This document shows, one piece after another, positions 3,333 through 64,000 of a stretch of DNA of 64,000 nt; within the stretch, counting starts at the first letter, position 1; each line of letters begins with the position of its first letter. The stretch is from assembly GCF_017094465.1 (NCBI RefSeq), contig NZ_CP064791.1, positions 1-64,000 of the forward strand, written 5' to 3'. The position numbers and the translations under genes are program-made. Source of the stretch: Halapricum desulfuricans (GTDB lineage: Archaea > Halobacteriota > Halobacteria > Halobacteriales > Haloarculaceae). The notes beneath the pieces were generated by a model that was not told the origin of the DNA, searched no databases, and worked only from the letters and a program-made list of their open reading frames with translations.

Positions 3333-3459
3333 TGTCGGTTTCCACCCGGCGGACGGCTACCAATCTTTCGCTTGGTCGCTGTCTCGCCGGTTGTGTTCTC
3401 GCCTGTTGTTTCTCTCCCTTACCGTCACTCTTTTGCTCGGCGGCGCGAATCCTCGCGGT

Positions 3460-7165: not shown

Positions 7166-7215
7166 CGCTCGGTCGCCCCGTCCTGGCAGTTCACTCCTCT
7201 CATGCGGAATCTCGA

Positions 7216-7689
7216 TCAGCCTTCTGCACCGTCCCGAACGGCCACTGCCATCCCAGTCTCGAAATCCAGCATGTCTCCGGCCGGCAGCTCCGCGCGGCCG
7301 ACCGCCAGCAACTCCCCCTCGTGGTGGGTCACGAGGACTTCGTCACCGGGTCGCACGTCCGGATCGACCTCACGGACGAACTTCGCGAAGACGTTCTTCT
7401 CGTCCCGGACGAACGGTTCGCTCTCGTCGCCGACGACGACCCGATAGTCGGGATAGGGGAGCAATTCGTGGAGCCGACGACCGCCGGCCAGCCCGAGCGT
7501 GAACCGGCCCGTCGTGCTGTAGGTCCCGATCCGTCCGTCCGGCGCGATGATCTGTCGCGGCCGGCCGGAACTCGAACGGGTAATCTCCAGGTCGGGGTCG
7601 TCGAACAGCGCCGAACCGTCCGACCCGAACTGATAGGCTGCGACCCGGGCTAGCGCGTCCAGATCCATCTCCGAGGCGGCCTCAGTCAT
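7216..7689 (-). CDS. PUA-domain RNA-binding protein
   Basis: Small protein of 157 aa with an N-terminal region of about 75 residues (MDLDALARVAAYQFG, then a stretch about an apparent display of DGRIGTYSTTGRFTL) and a C-terminal PUA fold of about 75 residues, seen in YRVVVGDESEPFVRDEKNV and VLVTHHEGELLAVGRAEL. PUA domains bind tRNA or rRNA and often accompany modification enzymes such as archaeosine synthases; no catalytic domain is visible here. The start at 7689 is chosen because upstream residues look non-coding. Family-level identity is confident, the substrate unknown. Confidence 0.78.
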   Translation of the reverse strand: MTEAASEMDLDALARVAAYQFGSDGSALFDDPDLEITRSSSGRPRQIIAPDGRIGTYSTTGRFTLGLAGGRRLHELLPYPDYRVVVGDESEPFVRDEKNVFAKFVREVDPDVRPGDEVLVTHHEGELLAVGRAELPAGDMLDFETGMAVAVRDGAEG

Positions 7690-7792
7690 GTCTGCCGATC
7701 CGGTGCGACCGGGCAAACGCCTTTCGACCGCCGTCCCTGCGGGAATCGCCGCTACGCTGGCGTTTATCCGTTGACTGCTCGAACCGTGCTGT

Positions 7793-7969
7793 ATGGCAAC
7801 GGAGACACGCAAGCTCGCTGTCGGTGGCGGCCTGCTTTTCGTCTGTAGCGTCGCGATTATCGTGCTGGGGATGGCGGATATCCCGATCGTCGTTGGGGCT
7901 GTCGCCGCGCTCGGCCTGGCCGCGGGCGCGCTGCTGGTCGGCACGTCCGAAGGCGGTCGCCCCGTATAG
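7793..7969 (+). CDS. Small two-helix membrane protein
   Basis: A 58-aa protein with ATG at 7793 and TAG at 7967-7969. Two hydrophobic segments (about residues 8-25 and 29-50) are separated by a short turn containing Met-Ala-Asp-Ile-Pro. It sits between two minus-strand genes and is transcribed alone. Such tiny double-membrane-span proteins are common in haloarchaea; no function can be assigned. Confidence 0.6.
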   Translation: MATETRKLAVGGGLLFVCSVAIIVLGMADIPIVVGAVAALGLAAGALLVGTSEGGRPV

Positions 7970-7990
7970 AGTCGAAGACGACAGACCCGC

Positions 7991-8494
7991 CTAGAGCAAG
8001 AACCGATCGGGATCGGACCCGAGGTCGATGAACCCGTCAGCCGCGGCGATCAGATCCTCGGCAGTCGATTCCTCGAACGCGAGCACGTCGACCCTGACGC
8101 CCTCGTGCTGGAGGTGCCTGCACAGCCTCGTGAAGTCACCGTCGCCGGTGCACAGCGCGACGGCGTCGACGTGTTCGGCCAGCGAGACGGCGTCCAGACT
8201 CATCCCGACGTCCCAGTCAGCTTTCTTCGAGCCGTCGCCGAACGTCCGGATCTCCTTGATCCGGGTTTCGAACCCGATGTCGATCAGCGCGTCGAAGAAC
8301 GCCTCCTCTTCGGGCGCGTTCGCTTTGATGACGTAGGCGATCGCCCGCGTGAGCGACCGGCCGTCGACCGCCGCGTCGAGCAACTCCGCGTAGTCGATAT
8401 TGCGCTCGTGGAGGCTTCGTGCTGTGTGATAGAGGTTCTGGGAGTCGGCGAGGACCGCGACCCGTTGTGTCCCGTGGGTTTCGTTTCTGGTCAT
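7991..8494 (-). CDS. NYN (LabA/DUF88) domain protein, PIN-like nuclease fold
   Basis: A 167-aa NYN-domain protein with PIN-like nuclease fold. Acidic residues are placed as in the family: LADSQNLYH at the N-terminus, KADWDVGMSLDAV in the middle and ALCTGDGDFTRL near residue 120. These Asp residues normally coordinate a metal for RNA cleavage. The start at ATG 8494 is preferred; an in-frame GTG at 8503 is possible. The neighbours (PUA protein, aminopeptidase) are on the same strand but not tightly spaced. The RNA target is unknown. Confidence 0.85.
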   Translation of the reverse strand: MTRNETHGTQRVAVLADSQNLYHTARSLHERNIDYAELLDAAVDGRSLTRAIAYVIKANAPEEEAFFDALIDIGFETRIKEIRTFGDGSKKADWDVGMSLDAVSLAEHVDAVALCTGDGDFTRLCRHLQHEGVRVDVLAFEESTAEDLIAAADGFIDLGSDPDRFLL

Positions 8495-8592
8495 TGCGTA
8501 CACGTCCAGGTGCCACGCAAATAGCGCTTGTGGCTCTCGATTCGACTATCTTTTGCGAGGAGCGAGTCCCGTCGTTTACGACGGGGAGGATG

Positions 8593-9543
8593 TCACCTCG
8601 TCGGGAGCGCGACTGCTTCGCCGTCGGCGTACACCGTCGGATCGCGGACGATCCCGTCCAGGTGCAGCGGCGCTTCGGTGTCGCCGCCGATCGAGGCGTC
8701 GTCGCCGATCGCGAAGTGGACCGTCCCGCCCGCCTTCTCGTCGAGTAACACCGAGCCGAGCAACCGCTCGACGGCCACGTTCGTCCCGATCCCCAGCTCG
8801 GCCAGATTGTAGGCGGCTTCGCCAACTTCCTCGGCTGCCGCCTCGACCTGCTCGCGGATCGCGTCGTCCTCGATCGCGGTGACCTGTCCATTTTCGACCT
8901 CGAAGGCGACCGTCTGGCCGTCCTCAAGCAATCCGTGAGGGCGCATCGTTCCGTCGACGACGACCCGCCCGTCGGCGGTCTCGGGGCTGACGAACACCTC
9001 ACCCGCCGGTAGATTCGAGAACGACCCGGGTTCGTGGACGATCCCGGTGTCCTCCTGCCACTCCCGGTCGCCGGGTTCGAGCGTGATGTCCGTCCCCGAC
9101 GGTGCGGTCACCCGGATCTCCGTCGCGTCGCCGACCGCCGCGAGCACCCTATCGCAGTGCTCGCGGATCGATTCGTAGTCGGCGTCCAGCCCGCGCGTGA
9201 ACACCTCCTTGGTGATTCCCGGGAGCGTCGCGGCCCGGGCACCGCTGTCCGTGGCCGTCGAGCGCGCCCGGGTGTGGCTGAGGCTCTTGGTCGTCGGCGC
9301 GAGCAACACGTCCGGTTCGCGCATGGCTGCCGCGACCGTCGCCGGTGGTTCCTCGCCGTGCTGATCGCCCGGCGGGTACCGGACGACCGTCACGTCGTCG
9401 GTGATCTCGCTCGCGACGTCGTACAGGACCTTCCCGATCTTCCAGCGCTCGTCGTCGGTGACGATCCCGCAGGATTCTCCGGATTGCAGTCCCATACACT
9501 GGTTTAGTGCCGTCTCGGCCGCAGCACGGAGTTCGTCGGTCAT
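8593..9543 (-). CDS. M29-like (aminopeptidase T / COG2309) metallopeptidase family protein
   Basis: A 316-aa protein resembling the haloarchaeal aminopeptidases annotated as leucyl aminopeptidase (COG2309). Conserved elements are LLAPTTKSLSHTRAR, the acidic loop TAPSGTDITL, FSNLPAGEVFVSPET and the C-terminal HFAIGDDASIGGD. The FSNLPAGEV motif contains the Glu that acts with metal ligands in this family. It probably trims N-terminal residues from peptides in the cytoplasm. It stands alone in transcription terms. Activity is inferred from family membership only. Confidence 0.78.
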   Translation of the reverse strand: MTDELRAAAETALNQCMGLQSGESCGIVTDDERWKIGKVLYDVASEITDDVTVVRYPPGDQHGEEPPATVAAAMREPDVLLAPTTKSLSHTRARSTATDSGARAATLPGITKEVFTRGLDADYESIREHCDRVLAAVGDATEIRVTAPSGTDITLEPGDREWQEDTGIVHEPGSFSNLPAGEVFVSPETADGRVVVDGTMRPHGLLEDGQTVAFEVENGQVTAIEDDAIREQVEAAAEEVGEAAYNLAELGIGTNVAVERLLGSVLLDEKAGGTVHFAIGDDASIGGDTEAPLHLDGIVRDPTVYADGEAVALPTR

Positions 9544-19933: not shown

Positions 19934-20179
19934 ATGATACAAACGTGGATACTAGCGGCTTCCATTGCGGCAGGTGGTGTAGTCATATTTGCGCTTGACC
20001 GCGACATTTATCGCCATGAGGGAAGTCCCGTCAGTTACCTCTTCATTTTCGCGATGGTGGGGGCAGCGTATTACTTCGGACTCAAAGGGCTGTTCGGCGC
20101 CGTTGTTCTCGGGATTATAACTAACGGAATACATGCGTTCGCTGCTCGACAACAGAGTACTGCCAAGACGGCCCCGTAA
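19934..20179 (+). CDS. Small membrane protein of SpoIIM cassette 1
   Basis: An 81-aa protein with two or three hydrophobic segments (about 3-20, 34-50 and 52-68) and a short charged loop (LDRDIYRHEGSP). It ends 20 bases before a SpoIIM gene on the same strand, the same order as in the three other cassettes, although sequence similarity between the small proteins is low. In bacterial circular bacteriocin loci small membrane proteins next to SpoIIM genes give immunity; a similar role is inferred here. The expected peptide gene upstream is missing and the transposon-like element occupies its place. Confidence 0.65.
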   Translation: MIQTWILAASIAAGGVVIFALDRDIYRHEGSPVSYLFIFAMVGAAYYFGLKGLFGAVVLGIITNGIHAFAARQQSTAKTAP

Positions 20180-20199
20180 CTTCTCCCCATCCATATACG

Positions 20200-20751
20200 A
20201 TGCAACTGATACGCCCCTCTCGTACTGTTAGGTCTCTTGTCGGAATCAACCTGGGTTTGTTCCTTGGCGGAGTATCAGCCGGATTGATCCTTGGCGTTCC
20301 TGACCAGGGAATGTCGGTATCCGACCCATCGTACTACTCTGTCGAGAGTCTAAACTTTGTTAACATCCTTTGGAACAACGCGCAGGTGACAGTATTGCTA
20401 TTTCTGACGAGCTTGACGCTGCTCTGGATTATCGGTGCATTCTTACTCGTCCTAAACGGCTACGTACTCGGCACGACGATCCTCGCCGCGCGAGCGACGG
20501 GTTGCTCTTGGCTACTCATCGCTATGACTACGCTTCCACACGGGGCTATCGAGGTATTTGCCTTCGCGCTATCGAGTGCTGTCGGGGTGGTACTGCCACT
20601 CCAAATTATCAACTATCTCCGTGGCATAAATGACCGGCTCATCTCCCGCGAGAGCAACGTGGAGACTGCGACATATCTGGCTCTCTCTTTCGTTCTTATC
20701 GTCGTCGCTGCGTGGATAGAGGCGACTGTCTCGCTCTCGATAGCGGCCTAA
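20200..20751 (+). CDS. SpoIIM/DUF95-family membrane protein (cassette 1)
   Basis: A 183-aa integral membrane protein of about five helices. It shares with the other three copies an Asn pair (N59-N60), an Asn-Gly (N86-G87) and the motif TLPHGAIE (P113, H114, E118). SpoIIM/DUF95 proteins are found in spore engulfment complexes and in circular bacteriocin clusters, where they are needed for maturation. The invariant His and Glu four residues apart could be functional residues within the membrane. The peptide partner is absent upstream, so this copy may be orphaned or act on a peptide from another cassette. Confidence 0.8.
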   Translation: MQLIRPSRTVRSLVGINLGLFLGGVSAGLILGVPDQGMSVSDPSYYSVESLNFVNILWNNAQVTVLLFLTSLTLLWIIGAFLLVLNGYVLGTTILAARATGCSWLLIAMTTLPHGAIEVFAFALSSAVGVVLPLQIINYLRGINDRLISRESNVETATYLALSFVLIVVAAWIEATVSLSIAA

Positions 20752-21015: not shown

Positions 21016-21867
21016 TCAGTCCTGCCCGTGGGCAATCGACATCCCTCGATTGTCCGTCTCCACGATGGAAGACGCGCGAGTTCGAAGCGAGTCGATCCGT
21101 TTGCTCGCCCACTTCTGGACCGTCTCGTCGGTCGTCTCGACCAGGACGTGGGGCTTGTCGTGCTCGTCGAGTCCCAGAATAACCACTCGGTCGTCGATTC
21201 GCGCGACGCCGTAGTCAATCTTCGCACCTGCCAGGACGCCAATATCGAGAGGTCCGCGCTGAACGAGGTTCTTCAGTTTGGTCTTATGTTCGGCCTGTAA
21301 TGTGTCTGCGATGTCTTCGGGAACGTACAGAGAGATGTCGCTGTCCGCTGCCTGGAATATCGGGGCATCCGTCCGATTAAACAGGAGCGGATTTGTCGGA
21401 ATATACCCACTCACATTTGTCGCGTCCTCGATTAGTGCTGTTAACCGTTGGTGAGGAGCATACGGCTTGGCACGTGTTACCTCCGTAACAGTCACTGCCG
21501 AGAGGCTCCGAATGTCGAAGTCGAATTCTGACGGCGGTACACACGAAAACAGCGGCTCCAACTCGAGGGCCGTTTCGACGTGATCGCTGAACGCGGTGAG
21601 GGCGTCCAAGACAACCCTCCCAAGCGGTGTAGACCGAAACTCGTTGTCGATCGTCTCCTCGATTAGGTTCGCCTCGATCATCTCCTGGAGATTGTGACGG
21701 ACTGTCGTCCGTGGTGACTCCAGACAATCAGAAAGGTCCCGGAGGTCGAGTGTCCCATCAGTGAGTATCGATAAGATCTCGATCCTGACTGGCGTTCTTG
21801 CGACGTGATTGAGTAATTCTTGAACCCGTGGAGACACCCGTTTCCCCTCACCATTTTGTGAACACAT
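21016..21867 (-). CDS. HTH transcriptional regulator, FilR1/DUF1724-type
   Basis: A 283-aa regulator typical of euryarchaea. The N-terminal winged helix (about 12-85) includes TPVRIEILSILTDG and SPRTTVRHNLQEMIEANLIE. The C-terminal domain matches the FilR1/DUF1724 type: PSEFDFDIRSLSAVTVTEVT, a central DAPIFQAADSDISLYVP and IDYGVARIDDRVVILGLDE. It is the last gene of a minus-strand run peptide, small membrane protein, SpoIIM, regulator, starting 25 bases after the SpoIIM gene. It may control peptide production, perhaps by autoregulation; the ligand is unknown. Confidence 0.85.
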   Translation of the reverse strand: MCSQNGEGKRVSPRVQELLNHVARTPVRIEILSILTDGTLDLRDLSDCLESPRTTVRHNLQEMIEANLIEETIDNEFRSTPLGRVVLDALTAFSDHVETALELEPLFSCVPPSEFDFDIRSLSAVTVTEVTRAKPYAPHQRLTALIEDATNVSGYIPTNPLLFNRTDAPIFQAADSDISLYVPEDIADTLQAEHKTKLKNLVQRGPLDIGVLAGAKIDYGVARIDDRVVILGLDEHDKPHVLVETTDETVQKWASKRIDSLRTRASSIVETDNRGMSIAHGQD

Positions 21868-21892: not shown

Positions 21893-22483
21893 TCATATAC
21901 TTAAAACCGCCCCTTGTGCTCTCAGTCTAGCGATCTGTGCGGTGATTTGACTCTCGACGGCGGCTGCAATGACAACCAGGCTGAACGCGACAATGAGAAG
22001 GACTGCCATCTGGACGATATCGCGCTGACAGAGGGGAGTATCACGCCGTTTCAGCAAATACGCACCTAGACCAACTGGCACTTTCAGACCAACGCACCCG
22101 GCCATCCAGAACGCTGGGAGTTCAAACACGGCGTGTGGAAGTGTCAACGCGAAGAATGTACCTAGCTCCCCGGTGCCGGCAGCAGTCCCTGCAAGCAATC
22201 CGATCACGAGCCCGTTCTGAAACAAGACGATAAGCGTCGGAATCCCGATCAGAAGTCCTCCGAGTGCCAGCACTGTCAGGACGCTCGTATTTGTGACGAG
22301 AAGGTGCCCCAGTTGAAGCTGCTGGGTGGTCTGCTGTATCGATGCTGTCTCCGGACCCCCTTTCGCTGTGCCGGTGAGTACGAGAGCGACGCCGGTGATA
22401 GCTCCAAGTGTGGTCGTACCGATTGAAAGAACGAGCGGTTTCGCGTTGTTCGCGAGCGATCGTCGTGGGGACAAGGGAAACAT
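21893..22483 (-). CDS. SpoIIM/DUF95-family membrane protein (cassette 2)
   Basis: A 196-aa polytopic membrane protein. It keeps the cassette-wide signature: Asn65 of the Asn-Asn position (here Thr-Asn), N90-G91 and TLPHAVFE with P116, H117 and E121. Its ATG follows the TAG of the small membrane protein gene with no gap, showing coupled translation. The basic N-terminus should face the cytoplasm. By analogy with SpoIIM/DUF95 proteins of circular bacteriocin loci it is proposed to process or export the peptide encoded at 22803-23141. Confidence 0.82.
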   Translation of the reverse strand: MFPLSPRRSLANNAKPLVLSIGTTTLGAITGVALVLTGTAKGGPETASIQQTTQQLQLGHLLVTNTSVLTVLALGGLLIGIPTLIVLFQNGLVIGLLAGTAAGTGELGTFFALTLPHAVFELPAFWMAGCVGLKVPVGLGAYLLKRRDTPLCQRDIVQMAVLLIVAFSLVVIAAAVESQITAQIARLRAQGAVLSI

Positions 22484-22802: not shown

Positions 22803-23141
22803 TTACGCCGCAAGTAGACCGCCGGTTGCGGCTGCACCGGCACCAAATGTTGCAGCTGTGCCTGTAGCGGATACGTAAGTTGCTGCACCGCTCGCAGCAG
22901 TCCCGGATCCACTGATGACCGCTGATCCCCCAGCTAAGGTGCTGTCGGCGTCGAGATCATCATTCAACGCCTTGTACGCGAGGTAGCTGGCACCGAGATC
23001 GCCGGTGCTTGAACTGGTGGCCACCACTGTGCCGACTCCGGCAGTGAGGAGACTGAGCGCGAGCACAACGGCGACTGCGGCGGTGATGGGACTATTCGAC
23101 TCGTTCGCGGTTGCGGTCTGTAACGTAACGTTCTCGGTCAT
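22803..23141 (-). CDS. Ala/Gly-rich hydrophobic peptide precursor, archaeocin candidate (cassette 2)
   Basis: A 112-aa protein. A polar N-terminus of about 18 residues precedes a hydrophobic helix (TAAVAVVLALSLLTAG), then a polar stretch ending SYLAYKALNDD, and finally about 45 residues made almost only of Ala, Gly, Ser, Thr and Val, ending GLLAA. Charge in the C-terminal half is nearly nil, extreme for a haloarchaeal protein. It heads the minus-strand operon; TATA-like sequences occur at 23177-23198. Size, composition and the SpoIIM partner resemble circular bacteriocin precursors. The processing site cannot be told from sequence. Confidence 0.7.
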   Translation of the reverse strand: MTENVTLQTATANESNSPITAAVAVVLALSLLTAGVGTVVATSSSTGDLGASYLAYKALNDDLDADSTLAGGSAVISGSGTAASGAATYVSATGTAATFGAGAAATGGLLAA

Positions 23142-23318: not shown

Positions 23319-23939
23319 ATGCTCAGTGTCATCAGGGATCCGGCGCTGTTCTATCAGGAACAAGCAACCGATCGGTTGAGTGGCCCCATTTTGACCGTTC
23401 TCATCGCGGCAGTCACGAACGTACTTGCTACTGTGATCCTGCTGGCTTCCTCGTGGTCGACTATCGCCGAAGCCAGTACATATGTTACCACCGCATACGT
23501 GCTCAGCATTTTCTTTGGTATTGGCAGCGTCGTGGGATCGTGGGTACTGTATTCGGCAGCGTTTCACGCTGTCTCGGCGGTGTTCGGCGGCGAGGGAAGC
23601 TTTCGGCGGACTCTAACGTACACCGGTTGGGGGTTCGTCCCAATCGCCGTTAGTGGCCTCATCCACGCCGGCCTGATATTCCTGCGCGTTCGTGAGGCCA
23701 TATTTCCCGACTCAGCACAACAACTCGGGCCGTTCGTCCAGCAATTAACAAGTGGGCCGCTATTCACAATGGCGTCGCTTCTCGGCATCGTATTCACGAT
23801 CTGGAGCGGTGTAATATGGACGTTCGCGATGCGTGATGCGCGCGCTCTTTCGCTTCGGTATGCTGCGGCAACCGTTGCGCTCCCGCTCGGCATCTGGATC
23901 ACCTGGCGGTTGTATTCTGTCCTTTCACCGCTGCTCTAA
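23319..23939 (+). CDS. Yip1-family membrane protein (cassette 2)
   Basis: A 206-aa protein with a short N-terminal amphipathic part (RDPALFYQEQ) and five membrane helices, matching the Yip1 fold. It shares with the other cassette-linked Yip1 proteins a GWGFVP motif near residue 108 and a C-terminal SGVIWTFAMRDAR. Yip1 proteins shape membranes or assist transport in eukaryotes; in archaea their role is unknown. It is transcribed away from the peptide operon. The 14 bases after its stop lead into the right copy of the cydB repeat. Confidence 0.75.
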   Translation: MLSVIRDPALFYQEQATDRLSGPILTVLIAAVTNVLATVILLASSWSTIAEASTYVTTAYVLSIFFGIGSVVGSWVLYSAAFHAVSAVFGGEGSFRRTLTYTGWGFVPIAVSGLIHAGLIFLRVREAIFPDSAQQLGPFVQQLTSGPLFTMASLLGIVFTIWSGVIWTFAMRDARALSLRYAAATVALPLGIWITWRLYSVLSPLL

Positions 23940-45973: not shown

Positions 45974-46086
45974 ACTACCCCGGCCTCTTCGCTCATGGCT
46001 TCTTCTCGCGGGCTGGAGGGCCGCTCAAATGGCTGTGGGATTCGTTCTGTGCTTATCCCCGTTCACTTCATTAGGGGTTCCGTCAG

Positions 46087-46366
46087 ATGGGGCCTGACAA
46101 CGGGCTGTTCGGGAAGACGGTCCGGCCGGAGTACTACCAGTCCGGCGAACGGACGCAGGAAGCTTGAACAGACACGGTTTCAAAAAAAGCGCGACAACCT
46201 GGACGACGGATACACAATCCTGACCATCGATCAGACGCGTCAGATCCTCTCGATGCTGATCTATGCGTGTGTTCAAGAAGGGGACCGCCCGCCACTGCTG
46301 GTGACAGGCGCGTGGGACAGTATCAAACTGCTCGGTACAGTCAGCGATTCCGGCGAAACGTGCTGT
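46087..46366 (+). pseudogene. Broken IS630-type transposase fragment
   Basis: Two frames carry one decayed gene. The first (46087-46167) reads DNGLFGKTVRPEYYQSGERT; after a frameshift near 46160 a second frame continues QTRFQKKRDNLDDGYTILT, then IDQTRQILSM and VTGAWDSIKLLGTVSDSGET. The latter fits the DDE catalytic domain of haloarchaeal IS630-family transposases (first Asp in the IDQT position). The match ends where the Yip1 gene begins on the other strand (46367). No start, N-terminus or terminal repeats remain. The rest of the 45974-46366 gap shows nothing. Confidence 0.5.
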
Positions 46367-46993
46367 TTATGTCGACTGCATCACGATCCAGATAATACCG
46401 AACACAACCGGGGGTGCGGCAGACACTGCGGCCTCTCGAATTGATATCTTCCGGGCGTGCTTGATCCCGAACGTCCAGAGTACCCCCATCCAAATCAGGG
46501 ACATACTTCGTATTATTGCGATGAAGACGGTAATGACACCTTGCTGGGCTCTAACTACGGATTGGGCCATCGTTTCGGGTCTTTCTGGGATCACAACTCC
46601 CTGGAGTGAAACAAGTATCAGCAAACTTGACAGTAAACCCGCGATAATCGCAGGGATAAATCCCCAGCTAATGTACTTCATCGCTTTCCGAAGTGTCCCT
46701 TTGCCATCGAAGAGGAGGCCTGACACAGCCACGATGGCACATGTGGTAATGAACCAAATCACAAATGTGCCAAAGATTCCGGAGATCGCCCCTAAGACCG
46801 TCCCAAACATCACTGCCAACTTCAGCACCCCCGGTTGGAATGTATTCCATACCAAATATATAAGGTAAAATATTGGTATCGTATTTGTCACGGCAACTAT
46901 GACAATTATCTTTACCGAACTTCCCATCGTTGGTTCGCCTAACTTTTCAAAGAAGTCGTTCGGATCTATGAATAATTCGGGATTTATCTGCAT
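46367..46993 (-). CDS. Yip1-family membrane protein (cassette 3)
   Basis: A 208-aa protein with IDPNDFFEKLG near the N-terminus, five helices, YISWGFIPAIIAGL in the centre and MGVLWTFGIKHAR near the end: the same three landmarks as the other cassette-linked Yip1 proteins. Here it is on the same strand as the peptide operon and follows SpoIIM by 52 bases, so it may be the fourth gene of one transcript. Codon use is AT-rich compared with the flanking genes. Confidence 0.75.
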   Translation of the reverse strand: MQINPELFIDPNDFFEKLGEPTMGSSVKIIVIVAVTNTIPIFYLIYLVWNTFQPGVLKLAVMFGTVLGAISGIFGTFVIWFITTCAIVAVSGLLFDGKGTLRKAMKYISWGFIPAIIAGLLSSLLILVSLQGVVIPERPETMAQSVVRAQQGVITVFIAIIRSMSLIWMGVLWTFGIKHARKISIREAAVSAAPPVVFGIIWIVMQST

Positions 46994-47045
46994 TTTTGAT
47001 ATTAGTTGGATCTATTTCGTAGTCACTCTACTGAGTCTATAATTC

Positions 47046-47606
47046 TCAAATACTTCTTACAATGGCGGGAGTGGCAATCACTTCAATAACTGCCCCAATC
47101 AAGATTAAAACCAGAGCAGTCGCTGTCAGTACGCCAGCATCTCTTATGTCGCTGTATTCGATTGTAACAGTCTGCTCTCTTCTGAGGTATCTTATTATAT
47201 CTAGTGGGAATTTTAGACCTGCTGCTGAAGCAATTATAAAACCAGCAATTTCGAACATTCCGTGAGGGACGATCCACATCACTGATGTGAGCAACGTAGT
47301 CCCTTTTGTCGATCCAAGGATAGATACTCCTATAATGAATCCGTTGATGTACAGAAGTCCAATTGTTGCGAACCCTAAGAACGCTATACCACCGACTACT
47401 AGCACAATGACTATTACAGCGTTATTAAACAAGATGGATGTGAGAGTAAACTCGGTCAAATGAGAATACTTAGTCTCTGGAACCCCTTCAGTTCCAGAAC
47501 TTACGATGCTAATCCCTGTAAGTATCCCAAGTCCCAATGCCACTCCAGAGACTAGTAGTCTGTATTTAGCGCACACAAGAAGTCTCCAAACCGTTGATAA
47601 AATCAT
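47046..47606 (-). CDS. SpoIIM/DUF95-family membrane protein (cassette 3)
   Basis: A 186-aa membrane protein of about five helices. Signature residues are N61-N62, N88-G89 and IVPHGMFE (P114, H115, E119), at the same spacing as in the other copies. Very AT-rich for this genome and therefore probably acquired. It follows a 62-aa membrane protein and the peptide gene on the same strand. Confidence 0.82.
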   Translation of the reverse strand: MILSTVWRLLVCAKYRLLVSGVALGLGILTGISIVSSGTEGVPETKYSHLTEFTLTSILFNNAVIVIVLVVGGIAFLGFATIGLLYINGFIIGVSILGSTKGTTLLTSVMWIVPHGMFEIAGFIIASAAGLKFPLDIIRYLRREQTVTIEYSDIRDAGVLTATALVLILIGAVIEVIATPAIVRSI

Positions 47607-47630
47607 ACTTATATTTAGTATGATAGATTG

Positions 47631-47819
47631 CTATTTTCCCTCTGAAAAGTACAGTATCATTGCGGAGATAAATAGCAACAGCAGTGGTAACAGATATGCA
47701 ATTTGCGGAACATTCTCTCGAGTGAGAGTGAGTACTCCGACTGCTACCATTGCTAATCCGACGATGGCAGCTGCGGCGAACGACCCATCTATTGCTATCT
47801 TTGAGGCATTCAGATTCAT
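47631..47819 (-). CDS. Small two-helix membrane protein (cassette 3)
   Basis: A 62-aa protein with two hydrophobic segments (about 12-31 and 39-58) separated by TRENVPQ, ending with a short charged tail. It sits between the peptide and SpoIIM genes, 33 bases after the former and 24 before the latter, the position of the putative immunity or accessory protein in the other cassettes. Confidence 0.68.
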   Translation of the reverse strand: MNLNASKIAIDGSFAAAAIVGLAMVAVGVLTLTRENVPQIAYLLPLLLLFISAMILYFSEGK

Positions 47820-47852
47820 TATTATCGATGGATGGAGTGATGAATTTCTTAT

Positions 47853-48146
47853 TTACATCGCGCCGACGCCACTGACGACCATCGCACCACCGACGACACC
47901 TGCACCGACCAGACCAAGTTTACCGAGACCGCCGGCAGCCGTACTGAATCCAGCGAGGCCTCCCATAGCGACGCCCGCTGATCCAGCACTAATAGAACCG
48001 TAGGCGTAGGCAGCGGCGACACCACCCGCAAGGCCACCGGCCGATGAGACGAGGAGCGTCGTTAGGCCAAAGGCAACAACCGCTCCCAACGCGATGCTGT
48101 CAGTTCCAATCGAGACACTCTCTTTCACTCTCTTTCGGAATTTCAT
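47853..48146 (-). CDS. Gly/Ala-rich hydrophobic peptide precursor, archaeocin candidate (cassette 3)
   Basis: A 97-aa protein. A basic N-terminus (MKFRKRVKES) precedes about 80 residues made almost wholly of Gly, Ala, Val, Ser and Leu (for example GGLAGGVAAAYAYGSISAGS) with a single Lys (GLGKLG) and the end SGVGAM. Without the leader-like basic part the core is 60-75 residues, the length of circular bacteriocins. It heads a minus-strand operon. A TATA-like TATATTTAAAT is at 48197-48207. Confidence 0.72.
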   Translation of the reverse strand: MKFRKRVKESVSIGTDSIALGAVVAFGLTTLLVSSAGGLAGGVAAAYAYGSISAGSAGVAMGGLAGFSTAAGGLGKLGLVGAGVVGGAMVVSGVGAM

Positions 48147-48571
48147 CTCAGAGAAAACTAGTATAACGAAGACATATGTATCTGGTGTTTCAGTACTATA
48201 TTTAAATAAAGAATAATCATTTCTCCTACTCTGTTGATAGAGTCCGAGTTATAGTTAGAGTAGTTAATAAAGCAATATATTACTTGTATCGAATATCAAG
48301 CCGATTTCACGGCACTGTCGATACCAGTCCAGTGCTCGTTCGGTAATGTCGAGCGCTTCGTTGTCGACCACGAAGCCTCAGACATCCGGCGTTGAGGCCA
48401 CTCCGCCTATGAGTTATTAGTCGAGATACCTTCTTCGGTCGAATCCTCGTTTCAGTTCCAGAAGTTTCGTTGATCACTGTGGTCTCTCTCGACCTGAGGT
48501 CGGAGGCTTCGCCTCGAAACTGCCGCTCCGGACCGGCAAGCCTTACTACCACGGGGAGATATCAATCGATA
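48147..48571. other. AT-rich intergenic region with promoter and gene debris
   Basis: A 425-base gap. The left third is very AT-rich and contains the promoter of the cassette 3 peptide gene. From about 48285 to 48400 the minus strand has an open frame reading VVDNEALDITERALDWYRQC, then REIGLIFDTS and a stop, probably a fragment of a lost gene (transposase debris is possible but not recognisable). GC rises to the genomic level from 48420. No RNA gene is seen. Confidence 0.45.
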
Positions 48572-51778: not shown

Positions 51779-52930
51779 TTGCGACGTCGACCAACGCCTG
51801 ACTCGATCGGCAAGCAAGTGGCTACACGATTACCGCCTCGGTTCGTCCGCATCGGAGTCAGCGGGACTATCACCGGTGTTGGACTCGGGCTGGCGGCCCT
51901 TCTCATCGCGCAGCTGTTCGCCGGGTTTGCGACCCCGCTCGGACTGTTTTTCGGCGGCGTCTTCCCGCTCGCGCTCGCCACTGCCGTGGCCGCCGCCGGC
52001 CTGTTGATCTGGCGCTGTGGGCTGACTGCCGAGCAGAGCGTCCACGTCGGGTTCTGGTGGGCGATCGGGACTGGCGTCTCGACAGTGACCGGGTTCGCGC
52101 TGGTCATCTTCGAGGCCAGCGGCGGCGTCACCCTTGCTGACCCGGAGATCATCGTCGTCGGCAACAGCGCGAGCGGCGGCCTCGGCGGCCTGATCGTCGG
52201 CTGGTACGACGCTCGCCGGCTCGCGCTCGCCGCCGAACGCGAGCGCGAACGCCAGCAACTGGCCGACGAACGCGAGAAGCTGGCGCTGATCAACCGGATC
52301 GTCCGCCACGACATCGGTAACGACCTCCAGGTCATCGCCGGCACGGCCGACGCCCTCGAACGCTACGTCGACGACGACGGCGCCGAGCCCCTCGAACGGC
52401 TTCAGCGGACGACCAGCGAGGCGATCGATATCACCGAACGGCTCCGGACGTTCGTCTCCGCGCTGGAAGACGACGAAGCTGACCTGCGACCGATTGCCCT
52501 CCAGCAAGTCCTCACCACGCAGGTCGAGAACCTCAGAGATCGCTATCCCGCGGCGACGGTCTCGCTGTCCGAACCCGTGCCGGACGTCGCGGTGCAGGCG
52601 GACGAACTGCTCGCGACGGTGTTGCACAACCTCCTGTCGAACGCCGTCACGCACAACGACAGCGACGATCCGCGCGTGATCGTGACGGTCGAGACCGATC
52701 CCGGGATCGTGACGATCCGAGTCGCCGACGATGGTCCGGGGATCCCCGACCCACAGCGCGGCTCGCTGTTCGAGCGCGGTGAACTCGGGCCCGACAGCAA
52801 CGGCTCGGGGATCGGGCTGTACATCGTCGATCAACTCATCGAGCGCTACGACGGGTCGATCAGCGTCGAGGACAGCGACATCGGCGGTACGGCGTTCGAA
52901 ATAGAACTTCCACGGCCTGCCGGCGACTAA
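51779..52930 (+). CDS. Membrane sensor histidine kinase
   Basis: A haloarchaeal sensor kinase of up to 383 aa. Four membrane helices (about 28-150), then a coiled linker rich in Arg/Glu, H-box RIVRHDIGNDLQV (H177), N-box LHNLLSNAVTHND, and G-boxes DDGPGIP and GSGIGLYIV. No separate input domain; sensing may be by the membrane part, which recalls other haloarchaeal DICT-less kinases. Start uncertain: TTG 51779 or GTG 51821, both plausible. Its stop overlaps the end of the convergent radical SAM gene. No response regulator is adjacent. Confidence 0.87.
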   Translation: MRRRPTPDSIGKQVATRLPPRFVRIGVSGTITGVGLGLAALLIAQLFAGFATPLGLFFGGVFPLALATAVAAAGLLIWRCGLTAEQSVHVGFWWAIGTGVSTVTGFALVIFEASGGVTLADPEIIVVGNSASGGLGGLIVGWYDARRLALAAERERERQQLADEREKLALINRIVRHDIGNDLQVIAGTADALERYVDDDGAEPLERLQRTTSEAIDITERLRTFVSALEDDEADLRPIALQQVLTTQVENLRDRYPAATVSLSEPVPDVAVQADELLATVLHNLLSNAVTHNDSDDPRVIVTVETDPGIVTIRVADDGPGIPDPQRGSLFERGELGPDSNGSGIGLYIVDQLIERYDGSISVEDSDIGGTAFEIELPRPAGD

Positions 52931-54123
52931 CGACCGACGAGCGGACAGAGCGGGTCGCTGGCGAGTGGATCACCAGTCACCGCGTACGCACGCGACCGGG
53001 AGCCGCCACACAGCTCCCGGTAGGGACACTGGCCACAGCGACCCGAGCGCTTCCCGGTGTCGCGCAGCCGCCGGAACAGCTCCGAGTCGCGGTACAACTC
53101 GACCAGATCCGTCTCGCGGACGTTGCCGGCCGATTCGGGGAGAAAGCCAGAGGGGTAGACCTCGCCGCGATGGCTGACGAAGACGAACCCGGAGCCGGCG
53201 TGGGTCGAGCCGACCGAGACCGGTTCGCCCTCGATCTCGCGGGCGATCCGTCGGTACTGGGGGGCTTCGACGGTGATCAGCCGGAACGGCGCGTCGCGCT
53301 GGCGCCGATAGAGCCAGGCCATCCACTCGTCGGCCGCGGCCGGCGTGAGCTGAGCCAGTTCGGCCCCCCGGCCGATCGGCACGAGGAAGAATACCTCCCA
53401 CATGGCCGCCCCAAGCTCCTCGACCTGGTCGGCGATCGCCGGCAGCGACGCCGCCGTGTTCGCGGTGACGGTCGTGTTGATCTGGATGGACAGCCCGGCC
53501 TCGTCGGCCCACTCGGCGGCCTGCCGGACGCGTTCGTAGCTGCCCGACTCCCCGCGGAAGTCGTCGTGGCTCTTGGCGTCCGGGCCGTCCAGACTCAGCG
53601 CCATCCGGTGGATCCCGGCGTCGGCGAACCGCTCGATGACCTCCCGTGTGAGCTTCTGTGTCGGCGCTGGCGTCACCGCTGTCGGCAGGCCCAGCTCGGT
53701 GGCGTAATCGACCAGTTCGTCCAGGTCCGGCCGTTCGAGCGGGTCGCCGCCCGAAAAGACGAGAATCGGCGGCGGATGGCCGAAGTCCGCGACGCTCTCG
53801 AGGAGCCGCTTGCCCTCCTCGGTGGTCAGTTCCTCGGGGTCGCGATCGGGCTGAGCCTCCGCCCGACAGTGGTCACACTCCAGGCCACAGGCCTGGGTCA
53901 GTTCCCAGGTGACGATCAGCGGCGTCCGCGAGAAGTCCCGTGCCATCGGTGAGCCACCCGGGTGCCCCGTCGCTTCGGACGATCCCGAGCCCGGCGGCGA
54001 CCCGCCGGGATGCCCGGACGATCCACCGGGACGGCCTGTCGATCCACCCGGGTGACCGACTGGTGGGTCCCCGGAATGCCCGGACACCGACGATCCGGAA
54101 CGCGGCGTGTCCTCTCGGTCCAT
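52927..54123 (-). CDS. Radical SAM/SPASM protein with GHPGGS-repeat N-terminal tail
   Basis: A 398-aa radical SAM enzyme. A 60-residue N-terminal tail has repeated GHPGGS/GRPGGS units. The core starts TPLIVTWELTQACGLECDHC with the CxxxCxxC iron-sulfur motif, has VFSGGDPLERPDL, and ends with a SPASM-like CGQCPYRELCGG cluster motif. The layout recalls the AhbD/TIGR04053-like group, whose members act in heme or peptide cofactor synthesis; the substrate is not known. An alternative start at 53943 (MARDFS...) would drop the tail. Confidence 0.85.
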   Translation of the reverse strand: MDREDTPRSGSSVSGHSGDPPVGHPGGSTGRPGGSSGHPGGSPPGSGSSEATGHPGGSPMARDFSRTPLIVTWELTQACGLECDHCRAEAQPDRDPEELTTEEGKRLLESVADFGHPPPILVFSGGDPLERPDLDELVDYATELGLPTAVTPAPTQKLTREVIERFADAGIHRMALSLDGPDAKSHDDFRGESGSYERVRQAAEWADEAGLSIQINTTVTANTAASLPAIADQVEELGAAMWEVFFLVPIGRGAELAQLTPAAADEWMAWLYRRQRDAPFRLITVEAPQYRRIAREIEGEPVSVGSTHAGSGFVFVSHRGEVYPSGFLPESAGNVRETDLVELYRDSELFRRLRDTGKRSGRCGQCPYRELCGGSRSRAYAVTGDPLASDPLCPLVGR

Positions 54124-54230
54124 ACCCCTCTCTCGTCGTTGCGCGCTTGTTACCGTTGTGCCGGTTCCCGATACCTGCGAACGCGCGCCGATCGGCAGCT
54201 TTTCCAATCGCCGGCCCGCCATCCTCCGGT

Positions 54231-61652: not shown

Positions 61653-62270
61653 CTACACGAGATGAGTGAGTTCCCAAACGACCGATGCGAGCGTCGGGAT
61701 GGCGGCGACCAGCGCGCTCCGTCGCAGGCCCACGTCCGTCGCGTGTTTCAGGGCAAACGCCCAGAGGAAGCCGCGCCAGCAGATGAAACCGACGCTGACG
61801 ACTCGTATGACCTGGATGGCTGGATGCTGGTTCATTGCCTTTATCTGGGCACGGAGCGCGCCGGATGTCACCGCCTCGGGCACGGTGAAGACGGCGTAGA
61901 TGGCGAGGAAGCTCGCGACGCCCGCAAACGCAAGCGGGAGGAAGCCGAATCCGGTGAGGAAGAAAATCGTGCGGAACTCGCTGTCGCTGCCGAGCCGCCG
62001 AGTGAGCGTGAAAAAGAGGATACTGAAGAGGATCCAGATTACGAAAATCGTGAGTGCAGACGTGAACACGCCGAATGCGCCGCCGATCGCGTAAAACACG
62101 GTGAGTGGGCCGTCAGTGCCCGATATGAGTTGGAGGAATACGTATGCGGGGCCGAGGACCGTCGCGAACGCGGTGGCCAACACGACGAGCGTCGCCCGCC
62201 GCATTTCGAGCTCGTTCGCCTGTCGTTCGAAGAAGGTATCGGGATCACGGAGGAGGTGCGTCACCCACAT
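61653..62270 (-). CDS. Yip1-family membrane protein (cassette 4)
   Basis: A 205-aa protein with LLRDPDTFFERQ at the N-terminus, five helices, LTGFGFLPLAFAGV centrally and RGFLWAFALKHAT near the end. ATG at 62270 follows a TATA-like TTTATATT on the minus strand centred at 62296, 26 bases upstream, consistent with a leaderless transcript. It is divergent from the peptide operon, as in cassette 2. Confidence 0.76.
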   Translation of the reverse strand: MWVTHLLRDPDTFFERQANELEMRRATLVVLATAFATVLGPAYVFLQLISGTDGPLTVFYAIGGAFGVFTSALTIFVIWILFSILFFTLTRRLGSDSEFRTIFFLTGFGFLPLAFAGVASFLAIYAVFTVPEAVTSGALRAQIKAMNQHPAIQVIRVVSVGFICWRGFLWAFALKHATDVGLRRSALVAAIPTLASVVWELTHLV

Positions 62271-62279
62271 ATAATGCAA

Positions 62280-62366
62280 TTCTCTCTAAGCAATATAAAA
62301 TAATTCTGATTTTGAGGATATAGTCAGATTTAACTAATAGTACTATATATAGTTTAGTGTAGCAGT
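62280..62366. promoter_or_regulatory. Divergent promoter region, cassette 4
   Basis: An AT-rich 87-base gap. TATA-like TAAAATAATT lies near 62296 for the Yip1 gene, and ATTTAACTAATAG (62328-62340) and CTATATATAG (62343-62352) precede the peptide gene. Spacing suggests very short or no 5' leaders. Confidence 0.42.
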
Positions 62367-62645
62367 ATGACAAAGACTACTACCGAGTACGACAACCGTA
62401 CCGTCCTCACGGCATTTGCCGTTGGAACCACGCTGTTGGCGCTCTTCGCGACTGCCACGCCTATGAGCGCCGGCGCGTACCTCATCTACCAGGGGAGCAC
62501 CGCTAGCGGTGCTGCTGCTGCCGGTGGCGGCCTTGCGTCTATCGGTGGCGCAGTTACCGCCTACGGGACGGCGGGATCCGTTAGCACGACTGCCGCTATC
62601 GGATTGGGTATGACCGGCGCCGGCGGCGCCGTGGCCCTCGCGTAA
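62367..62645 (+). CDS. Ala/Gly-rich hydrophobic peptide precursor, archaeocin candidate (cassette 4)
   Basis: A 92-aa protein. A polar start (MTKTTTEYDNRT) precedes a hydrophobic stretch VLTAFAVGTTLLALFATA, then a 58-residue core from about AGAYLIYQGS with only Ala, Gly, Ser, Thr, Leu, Ile, Val, Tyr, Gln and Met, ending GGAVALA. The core has no charged residue. AGAYLIYQ resembles GASYLAYK of cassette 2. It heads the plus-strand operon peptide, membrane protein, SpoIIM. Core length, composition and neighbours match the circular bacteriocin pattern. The cleavage site is unknown. Confidence 0.74.
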   Translation: MTKTTTEYDNRTVLTAFAVGTTLLALFATATPMSAGAYLIYQGSTASGAAAAGGGLASIGGAVTAYGTAGSVSTTAAIGLGMTGAGGAVALA

Positions 62646-62711: not shown

Positions 62712-62957
62712 ATGCTCTCAAAACTCGTCGTTGCCTGTGCCGGAGCGCTCCCCCTGGTTGTGTTTTTCTCCGGGGTCTACGAAGAACCAACGCAGCGCAT
62801 CGCAATTGTAACTGCGAACGTCGGCTTGCTTGTCGGCGTCTTTGTCGCCTATACGAGCGAGGCGGGCGTGCCGTTGCCGTTACGCGTCGCGCTCTACAGC
62901 ATCGTGGTGCTGTCGCTCGTGTACCATCTCGGGGCCGCCGTCGCGTTGCGGCGATGA
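62712..62957 (+). CDS. Small three-helix membrane protein (cassette 4)
   Basis: An 81-aa protein with three hydrophobic segments (about 4-20, 30-47 and 56-76), a loop GVYEEPTQR and a basic end (Arg-Arg). It overlaps the SpoIIM gene by four bases (ATGA), a translational coupling also typical of immunity/SpoIIM pairs. Membership of the cassette is by position; function unknown. Confidence 0.72.
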   Translation: MLSKLVVACAGALPLVVFFSGVYEEPTQRIAIVTANVGLLVGVFVAYTSEAGVPLPLRVALYSIVVLSLVYHLGAAVALRR

Positions 62958-63544
62958 GTCACCGTGTCCGGTCGGCGCTCGCTGCACACCGCGACGAATT
63001 GGTCGCAGCGACGGCGGTCTACGCGGGGACGTTCCTGCTCGGGTTCGTGGCGTACGTCGCGTTCGGGACGCGAGTCGATGTCGCGGGCTACGAGTCGTCG
63101 GTCGCGTCGGCGTCCGCGGCTGCGGGTGTGGGACAGTTCACGTTCCTGCACATACTTGGGAACAACGCAGTCGTCGTCGGCGTGTCCGCGGCTGGCGGTC
63201 TCGCGCTCGGTGTTCCGACGCTCGTAAACACGCTTTTCAATGGCTTCGTAATGGGCGTGCTTGGGGGCGTCGTCGCCACCGCGGCGTCACCGGACGTGGC
63301 GCTCGCGGCGGTGTTGCCTCACGTCATCGTCGAGGTTCCGGCGTTCCTGCTGGCTGCTGCAGCGGGGTTCAAGCTCCCGCGGGCACTCGGCTCGTACCTA
63401 GTTGGGAACACCGAGTACATACTTGACCGGCGGACGGTGCGAGACTCGGCTGTGGTCGCGGTGACTGCCGTCGCGCTCGTGGTCGTCGCCGCCGTGGTGG
63501 AGGTCGTCATCACTCCCTGGGTGGTCAATCTCGTCGTGTCCTGA
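62954..63544 (+). CDS. SpoIIM/DUF95-family membrane protein (cassette 4)
   Basis: A 196-aa membrane protein of about five helices. Signature residues: N70-N71, N96-G97 and VLPHVIVE (P122, H123, E127). The GC content is closer to the genome than in cassettes 2 and 3. It ends the plus-strand three-gene operon. A 134-base gap follows before the next Yip1-type gene. Confidence 0.83.
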   Translation: MSHRVRSALAAHRDELVAATAVYAGTFLLGFVAYVAFGTRVDVAGYESSVASASAAAGVGQFTFLHILGNNAVVVGVSAAGGLALGVPTLVNTLFNGFVMGVLGGVVATAASPDVALAAVLPHVIVEVPAFLLAAAAGFKLPRALGSYLVGNTEYILDRRTVRDSAVVAVTAVALVVVAAVVEVVITPWVVNLVVS

Positions 63545-63678: not shown

Positions 63679-64000
63679 TCAAACGATGTTCCAGAGTGAC
63701 CAACTAATTGAGACAGCTACTGGGCCAGCGACGGTGATAATTGCTTCTCTGGAGGACAGGCCGCGAATACTCTTTACCGCGTAGAACCAGAGGAATCCCT
63801 GCCACACCGCGAAGGGCACTCCAAGGACGTTGGCGAGTACCAGCCAGGGGTTACTTTCTGTCGCCTGAATCGCTTGGGTAAGACCTTCTCCAACTGGTCG
63901 TAGTGGGACTTGCGAGAATACGTAGATCGCTGATACGGAACCGATGAAGGCGCCAATACCCGATGGGATGAATCCCCAGCCAATGGCTGCCAAAAGGTCA
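63679..64000 (-). CDS. Yip1-family membrane protein, 5' end beyond window
   Basis: The C-terminal half (about 107 residues visible) of a further Yip1-like protein, running off the right edge: AAIGWGFIPSGIGAFI and QGFLWFYAVKSIRGLSSRE match the landmarks of the other three. It suggests another cassette starts beyond 64000. The reading frame remains open at the window edge, so the apparent first Met near 63993 is not the true start. Confidence 0.72.
   Translation of the reverse strand, partial: DLLAAIGWGFIPSGIGAFIGSVSAIYVFSQVPLRPVGEGLTQAIQATESNPWLVLANVLGVPFAVWQGFLWFYAVKSIRGLSSREAIITVAGPVAVSISWSLWNIV

What the first reader, a model, noticed from the sequence alone, without database searches (positions are those of the whole stretch)
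62367..62645. Cassette 4 peptide: 58-residue core without charge
The core from about residue 35 to the end lacks Lys, Arg, Asp, Glu and His. The product would be wholly hydrophobic or neutral, as in gassericin A-type (subgroup II) circular bacteriocins.
Basis: partly seen in the sequence, partly recalled or inferred. Interest (0 to 1): 0.72.

Follow-up and report, generated by a model that had tools for sequence, protein, structure and literature searches.

The report
Archaeal circular-bacteriocin-like peptide cassette
A salt-loving archaeon carries a small gene for an uncharged, greasy peptide next to the same membrane-protein gene that marks bacterial ring-shaped antibiotics, so it is probably an archaeal counterpart of those antimicrobials, although no such ring has yet been shown.

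Summary
The ORF is real and as described: 92 aa, with charges only at K3, E7, D9 and R11. The charge-free run is 81 residues, the longest among 361 window ORFs. It opens an operon (precursor, small TM protein, SpoIIM/PF01944) divergent from a Yip1 gene. The genome has five PF01944 genes, all inside 45 kb and all in such cassettes; same-genus genomes tested have none. Homologous cassettes occur patchily in haloarchaea and in a second euryarchaeal family. There the precursors show a constant leader (median 61% identity) and a hypervariable 51-74-residue core (29%, shuffled level 25%) ending in A/L/F/W. All 27 loci found with the precursor profile carry SpoIIM within 1.5 kb. P0001 aligns significantly to that family, leader and core. 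The cassette SpoIIM is homologous to gassericin A's (E 1.5e-11). So a leader/core bacteriocin-type precursor is well supported. Head-to-tail cyclization is plausible but unproven. The gassericin label is not supported for the peptide: no PF12173 match, no Asn cleavage site, no ABC transporter in the window; gassericin A's core itself carries charges. Makarova et al. (2014/2015) described related SpoIIM+Yip1 cassettes as membrane-remodelling or defence systems. Verdict: new archaeal variant of circular-bacteriocin-type clusters.

The parts
62367..62645 (+). Precursor peptide gene of cassette 4 (P0001, 92 aa)
   Evidence: homologs in other archaeal cassettes
62367..62468 (+). Predicted leader, residues 1-34: charged N-terminus, hydrophobic segment about 12-28, AVG..P32 motif at the same ungapped spacing as the conserved leader of the second archaeal family
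   Evidence: border uncertain by about 5 residues
62469..62642 (+). Predicted core, 58 aa AGAYLIYQ...GGAVALA, no K/R/D/E/H
   Evidence: core homology
62712..62957 (+). Small hydrophobic protein, 81 aa, about 3 TM segments by eye; candidate immunity/accessory protein; stop overlaps SpoIIM start by 4 nt (ATGA)
   Evidence: position as in other cassettes
62954..63544 (+). SpoIIM (PF01944, formerly DUF95) membrane protein, 196 aa
   Evidence: Pfam 8.7e-25; homologous to gassericin-type SpoIIM, hhalign 97.4%, E 1.5e-11
61653..62270 (-). Yip1 (PF04893) membrane protein, divergently transcribed; ATG start at 62270
   Evidence: Pfam 1.1e-13
62271..62366 (.). AT-rich spacer between the divergent genes, likely holding both promoters (inferred)
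63679..63999 (-). Yip1 of cassette 5 (cut by window end; runs on into the contig to about 64302); its precursor, small TM and SpoIIM lie just outside the window at contig 64410-64730, 64770-65087 and 65088-65603
   Evidence: locus L006
47853..48146 (-). Precursor of cassette 3, 97 aa, 59-residue charge-free run
47631..47819 (-). Small TM protein of cassette 3
47046..47606 (-). SpoIIM of cassette 3
46367..46993 (-). Yip1 of cassette 3 (here downstream on the same strand)
22803..23141 (-). Precursor of cassette 2, 112 aa
22484..22777 (-). Small membrane protein of cassette 2 (ATG start assumed)
21893..22483 (-). SpoIIM of cassette 2
23319..23939 (+). Yip1 of cassette 2, divergent from the precursor
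19934..20179 (+). Small TM protein of cassette 1 (no precursor found upstream)
20200..20751 (+). SpoIIM of cassette 1

Best explanation
The gene encodes the precursor of a ribosomally made antimicrobial (archaeocin) of the SpoIIM-dependent, circular-bacteriocin-like kind. Shown by sequence: the family has a leader with a hydrophobic segment, a variable uncharged or low-charge core of about 51-74 residues with a hydrophobic last residue, and obligatory linkage to SpoIIM plus a small TM protein, usually with Yip1. Inferred: the leader holds the precursor in the cell membrane; it is cut off near residue 34-38; the new N-terminus is joined to the C-terminal Ala; the very hydrophobic product is released with the help of SpoIIM and Yip1; it inserts into membranes of competing archaea; and the small TM protein (with SpoIIM) gives the producer immunity. 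Several different cassettes in one genome would give a repertoire of peptides and immunities.
For: Leader/core pattern in 20 precursors of a second euryarchaeal family: leader median 61% identity, core 29% (shuffled 25%), leader above core in 186 of 190 pairs; core last residues only A/L/F/W. Conservation falls off sharply after an almost invariant Pro. P0001 aligns to that family with AVG and P32 at the same spacing; maximum score 100 against a shuffled mean of 58 (0/1000 free, 1/1000 with local composition kept); core alone 2/1000 and 0/1000. All 27 loci found by precursor profile carry SpoIIM within 1.5 kb, 16 also Yip1. SpoIIM is homologous to the gassericin-type SpoIIM, the class-defining gene of circular bacteriocins (PMC6131525, PMC13289728) and linked to circularization and immunity (PMC5695211). 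Yip1 is common in circular bacteriocin clusters (PMC8659200, PMC8534725). A related cluster, L258 in G539, has two tandem 66-aa precursors, small TM, SpoIIM, Yip1 and a MacB-type ABC transporter.
Against: No peptidase or cyclase was recognized and no ABC transporter lies in or near the cassette; UvrA is the only ABC-ATPase hit in the window. No match to any known circular bacteriocin family. The AlphaFold2 model is not confident (pLDDT 46, 4 sequences), so a closed helical bundle is neither shown nor excluded. Some haloarchaeal precursors look like ordinary signal-peptide proteins (L070, L073a). Haloarchaeal leaders are much less conserved than those of the second family. No activity or mass data.
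Confidence: 0.6

Rival explanations
1. A linear bacteriocin, pheromone or surface peptide: the N-terminal hydrophobic segment is an ordinary signal peptide, the core is released linear (or stays in the membrane), and SpoIIM/Yip1 act only in immunity or export.
For: Several cassette precursors have signal-peptide-like starts with A-x-A sites (L070, L073a, L073b). No known cyclase. Yip1 also accompanies leaderless linear bacteriocins (PMC11580447, PMC10707071).
Against: SpoIIM is described as the class-defining protein of circular, not linear, bacteriocins (PMC11580447, PMC13289728). The C-terminal residue is always hydrophobic in the second family. No GxxxG pair occurs in the P0001 core (0 against 3.4 expected), so a glycine-zipper peptide is not indicated.
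Confidence: 0.25
2. An unprocessed small membrane protein that is part of a SpoIIM-Yip1 membrane-remodelling or vesicle-forming complex, as Makarova et al. proposed for related cassettes.
For: SpoIIM + Yip1 + fast-evolving small TM proteins were interpreted this way (PMC5898192). The whole protein is hydrophobic and could span the membrane 2-3 times (low-confidence helices 5-30, 35-42, 49-71, 74-85).
Against: A conserved leader with a near-random core, patchy presence and several different paralogs per genome are unlike a structural subunit. The cassette is absent from the same-genus genomes tested. The earlier paper of the same group leaned to variable membrane-associated defence (PMC4158269).
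Confidence: 0.13
3. A spurious or decayed ORF with low-complexity composition.
For: High-GC DNA gives many spurious ORFs; Ala/Gly-rich sequences align easily.
Against: Composition-preserving shuffles almost never reach the observed similarity; four parallel precursors occupy the same position in four cassettes of this genome; operon with ATGA overlap; AT-rich spacer.
Confidence: 0.02

Closest known systems
Head-to-tail circular bacteriocins, subgroup II (gassericin A, acidocin B, plantacyclin B21AG, paracyclicin; PF12173)
   Same: Precursor length (92 against 85-91 aa), hydrophobic leader segment then core of about 58 aa, Ala at the C-terminus, GRAVY 0.9 against 1.0, adjacent SpoIIM/DUF95 and a small TM protein.
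   Different: No sequence similarity of the peptide, no PF12173 match, no Asn cleavage site, no ABC transporter in the cluster, a Yip1 gene instead, no charged residues in the core (gassericin A has 5 charged/His), order precursor-small TM-SpoIIM rather than precursor-SpoIIM-small TM-ABC.
Circular bacteriocin clusters with Yip1 (e.g. cerecyclin cyc cluster, several subgroup I groups; PMC8534725, PMC8659200)
   Same: Precursor, DUF95, small membrane protein and YIP1 protein in one cluster.
   Different: Those clusters all contain an ATP-binding protein, and the known peptides are bacterial; no archaeal example is reported in the papers I could read.
arCOG01996 (SpoIIM) + arCOG02054 (Yip1) + arCOG09673 cassettes of Archaeoglobi, Methanococci, Thermococci (Makarova 2014, PMC4158269; 2015, PMC5898192)
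   Same: Same two membrane families with small fast-evolving membrane proteins; very probably the same system.
   Different: Described there as membrane remodelling/vesicle formation or variable defence; 'bacteriocin' does not occur in the 2015 text and occurs once in the 2014 text, for a different set of loci. arCOG membership was not tested here. A 2019 mBio survey of archaeal antimicrobial peptides by that group was not held, so an earlier naming cannot be excluded.
Halocins / microhalocins (H4, S8, C8)
   Same: Peptide or protein antimicrobials of haloarchaea.
   Different: From general knowledge: these are not linked to SpoIIM/Yip1 and are linear; not tested here.

Membership tests
[quoted passage not shown]
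   PF01944 8.7e-25; homologous to gassericin-type SpoIIM E 1.5e-11
[quoted passage not shown]
   Only UvrA matches ABC ATPases in the window and the 8 kb beyond it; present in the related cluster L258
[quoted passage not shown]
   Leader/core split in the homologous family; P0001 core about 54-58 aa ending in Ala; cleavage itself not shown
[quoted passage not shown]
   81-aa TM protein 62712-62957 in the right place; immunity not testable
[quoted passage not shown]
   AlphaFold2 mean pLDDT 46, pTM 0.26
[quoted passage not shown] antimicrobial activity | not testable with these tools
   needs mass spectrometry and bioassay
Gassericin A-like family (PF12173, subgroup II) | Match to PF12173 | tested here: not met
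   P0001: 0 Pfam families at E<=1; controls 4.2e-50, 2.4e-26, 7.2e-26
Gassericin A-like family (PF12173, subgroup II) | Asn at the leader/core cleavage site (PMC8659200) | tested here: not met
   The only Asn in P0001 is N10
Gassericin A-like family (PF12173, subgroup II) | Hydrophobic, near-neutral core ending in Ala | tested here: met
Archaeal SpoIIM-Yip1 small-membrane-protein cassettes (Makarova 2014/2015) | SpoIIM, Yip1 and small fast-evolving membrane proteins in one locus | tested here: met
   Pfam; same layout in the second euryarchaeal family; arCOG numbers themselves not tested
Glycine-zipper bacteriocins | Repeated GxxxG in the core | tested here: not met
   0 GxxxG pairs against 3.4 expected by shuffling

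The most novel reading that the evidence does not exclude
A widespread euryarchaeal class of circular antimicrobial peptides, in which SpoIIM and Yip1 carry out leader removal, ring closure and export without a dedicated ABC transporter. The haloarchaeal member here would be a completely uncharged ring, and one genome would hold a 45-kb array of five divergent cassettes as a peptide and immunity repertoire.
Probability: 0.35. Interest if true: 0.82.

Novelty: new variant of a known kind. Interest (0 to 1): 0.62.

Why it matters
How circular bacteriocins lose their leader and close the ring is an open question, and no cyclizing enzyme is known (PMC8659200, PMC6131525). An archaeal version reduced to precursor, one small TM protein, SpoIIM and Yip1 would narrow the candidates for the cyclization machinery and could be tested in genetically tractable haloarchaea. 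It also offers a concrete function for the archaeal SpoIIM-Yip1 cassettes that were only described as membrane remodelling or defence, and adds a candidate class of archaeal antimicrobials.

Tried and rejected
Direct family search of the precursor (Pfam, NCBIfam, PADLOC, PDB sequences) gave nothing; the PDB hits to annelid hemoglobin at E 0.08 are composition noise. tblastn of the SpoIIM against PLSDB plasmids: no match. The genome-contig scan with six SpoIIM proteins returned mostly housekeeping SpoIIM and one new cassette (Natrinema gelatinilyticum, L124). The AlphaFold2 model with the four admissible precursors was low-confidence and was not used for fold searches; the second prediction job was not spent because the better relatives (loci from the genome search) are not admissible there. 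Glycine-zipper and inovirus-coat readings (weak Pfam hits, E about 0.04-0.07) were rejected: no GxxxG pairs and no viral genes noticed beside the cassettes. A close tie of cassette SpoIIM to bacterial bacteriocin SpoIIM in a tree could not be tested because the bacterial branches are too long; cassette SpoIIM proteins are, however, mostly separate from haloarchaeal housekeeping SpoIIM.

Full report
WHAT IS THERE. The ORF at 62367-62645 (+) encodes 92 aa, MTKTTTEYDNRTVLTAFAVGTTLLALFATATPMSAGAYLIYQGSTASGAAAAGGGLASIGGAVTAYGTAGSVSTTAAIGLGMTGAGGAVALA. Charged residues are K3, E7, D9 and R11 only. The remaining 81 residues are uncharged, the longest such run among 361 window ORFs of 60 aa or more, followed by the parallel gene of cassette 3 with 59.

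NEIGHBOURHOOD. Downstream on the same strand lie an 81-aa hydrophobic protein (62712-62957) and, overlapping it by ATGA, a SpoIIM protein (62954-63544; PF01944, 8.7e-25). Upstream and divergent is a Yip1 protein (PF04893, 1.1e-13). The 96-bp spacer is AT-rich. A genome-wide search finds five PF01944 genes, all between 20.2 and 65.6 kb of one contig. Four belong to complete cassettes (precursor, small TM, SpoIIM, Yip1), one of them starting at the window end and lying mostly outside it (L006). The fifth has only the small TM and SpoIIM. The four precursors differ strongly from each other, and the SpoIIM paralogs sit on long branches. The cassettes are therefore old and diverse, not recent duplicates. 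None of the four other same-genus genomes tested has a PF01944 hit, and only about 8 of 392 genomes of the order show a cassette: patchy, accessory genes.

RELATIVES. Cassettes with other precursors were found in several haloarchaea (L069, L070, L072, L073 with two precursors, L078, L095) and in Natrinema gelatinilyticum (L124). A Yip1 search over the phylum led to a second euryarchaeal family (f21; genomes unnamed, Archaeoglobi suspected from the literature and not verified) with the same layout. Its precursors begin with a shared leader, MYAVKNWNEEVxKWLAVGMxLAMxGMAVMPAVxVG, followed by unrelated cores. Among 20 precursors the leader has a median identity of 61% and the core 29% (shuffled 25%); the leader exceeds the core in 186 of 190 pairs; cores are 51-74 aa with last residue A, L, F or W. 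Conservation collapses after a nearly invariant Pro. Searching that family with the precursor profile alone gave 27 loci with an intact precursor ORF, and all 27 carry SpoIIM within 1.5 kb, 16 also Yip1. This is strong evidence that the small gene and SpoIIM work together and that the small gene is a leader-plus-variable-core precursor.

IS P0001 ONE OF THEM? Yes, by three tests. Position in the cassette is the same. Its AVG and Pro32 fall at the same ungapped spacing as in the conserved leader. And it aligns to L288/L289-type precursors over leader and core with scores that composition-preserving shuffles almost never reach: 0/1000 free and 1/1000 with local composition kept, family-wise over the whole set; core alone 2/1000 and 0/1000. 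SpoIIM, Yip1 and gassericin A as controls do not show such scores; the small TM protein is borderline (7/200). Cores of other haloarchaeal precursors (L069, L072, L124) match L248/L267 even better.

YARDSTICK. Three gassericin-type clusters were fetched from lactobacillus plasmids. gaaA is 91 aa with a hydrophobic leader segment and ends GATAA. It is followed by SpoIIM (162 aa), a 53-aa TM protein, ABC ATPase and permease. The architecture resembles cassette 4, and the SpoIIM proteins are homologous (hhalign 97.4%, E 1.5e-11, 139 columns). The peptides are not related by sequence: P0001 gives no PF12173 match while all three controls do. Gassericin A's core carries 5 charged/His residues, so the comparison on charge is loose. 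There is no Asn at the junction and no ABC transporter in the window or the 8 kb beyond.

MECHANISM. Shown: gene linkage, leader/core organization, SpoIIM homology. Inferred: membrane-held precursor, leader removal near residue 34-38, ring closure through the C-terminal Ala, SpoIIM/Yip1-assisted release, membrane insertion in competitors, immunity by the small TM protein with SpoIIM. The literature ties SpoIIM (DUF95) to immunity and circularization (PMC5695211), finds it in all circular bacteriocin clusters (PMC6131525), calls it class-defining (PMC13289728), and notes Yip1 as common in such clusters (PMC8659200, PMC8534725). The related cluster L258 in G539, with two tandem 66-aa precursors and a MacB-type ABC transporter, is a bridge between the transporter-free haloarchaeal cassette and classical clusters. 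AlphaFold2 could not decide the fold (pLDDT 46).

RELATION TO KNOWN WORK. Makarova et al. described cassettes of arCOG01996 (SpoIIM), arCOG02054 (Yip1) and fast-evolving small membrane proteins in Archaeoglobi, Methanococci and Thermococci, as variable defence in 2014 (PMC4158269) and as membrane remodelling/vesicle formation in 2015 (PMC5898192). Those are very probably the same system. The leader/core reading and the link to circular bacteriocins were not found in the papers I could search, but a 2019 survey by the same group is not held, so priority is open.

VERDICT. Observation right; interpretation partly right. It works like a circular-bacteriocin system and should not be filed as a gassericin A-type member. 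Novelty: new variant of a known kind.

Noticed in passing
contig C1 20.2-65.6 kb (window 19934-64000 and L006): All five SpoIIM (PF01944) genes of the genome sit within 45 kb, in five separate cassettes with housekeeping genes (ldh-like, uvrA, sensor kinase and others) between them.
   Followed up: yes
window 19934-20751: Cassette 1 has a small TM protein and SpoIIM but no recognizable precursor; it could be an orphan immunity pair.
   Followed up: partly
window 21016-21867 (-): A 283-aa HTH regulator (weak ArsR/MsvR-type match) lies between cassettes 1 and 2 and may regulate them.
   Followed up: no
window 52927-54222 (-): TIGR04053-family radical SAM/SPASM protein (2e-136); the nearest potential peptide-modifying enzyme, 8 kb from cassette 4, but no sign of linkage.
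   Followed up: partly
window 46000-48200: Cassette 3 lies in a clear low-GC dip (0.476 against about 0.65), suggesting foreign origin.
   Followed up: no
L258 (G539) 2856-3654, 7141-8978: Two nearly identical tandem 66-aa precursors with short or no leader, SpoIIM, Yip1, and a MacB-type ABC transporter with a 400-aa partner: an archaeal cluster closest to classical circular bacteriocin clusters.
   Followed up: partly
L248 4543-4809 and L124 3385-3672, L069 4320-4613, L072 4038-4328: Closely similar core peptides (GISSAELAGLALAGAV / GIGASSLSGLALAGAV) occur with different leaders in distant euryarchaea, suggesting core exchange or horizontal transfer.
   Followed up: partly
L079 (G218) 3431-4600; L277, L273, L274: Degraded cassettes with stop codons, i.e. 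turnover of these loci.
   Followed up: no
L073 2748-3493 (G074): Two different Gly/Ala-rich precursors in tandem before one SpoIIM, a possible two-peptide system.
   Followed up: no
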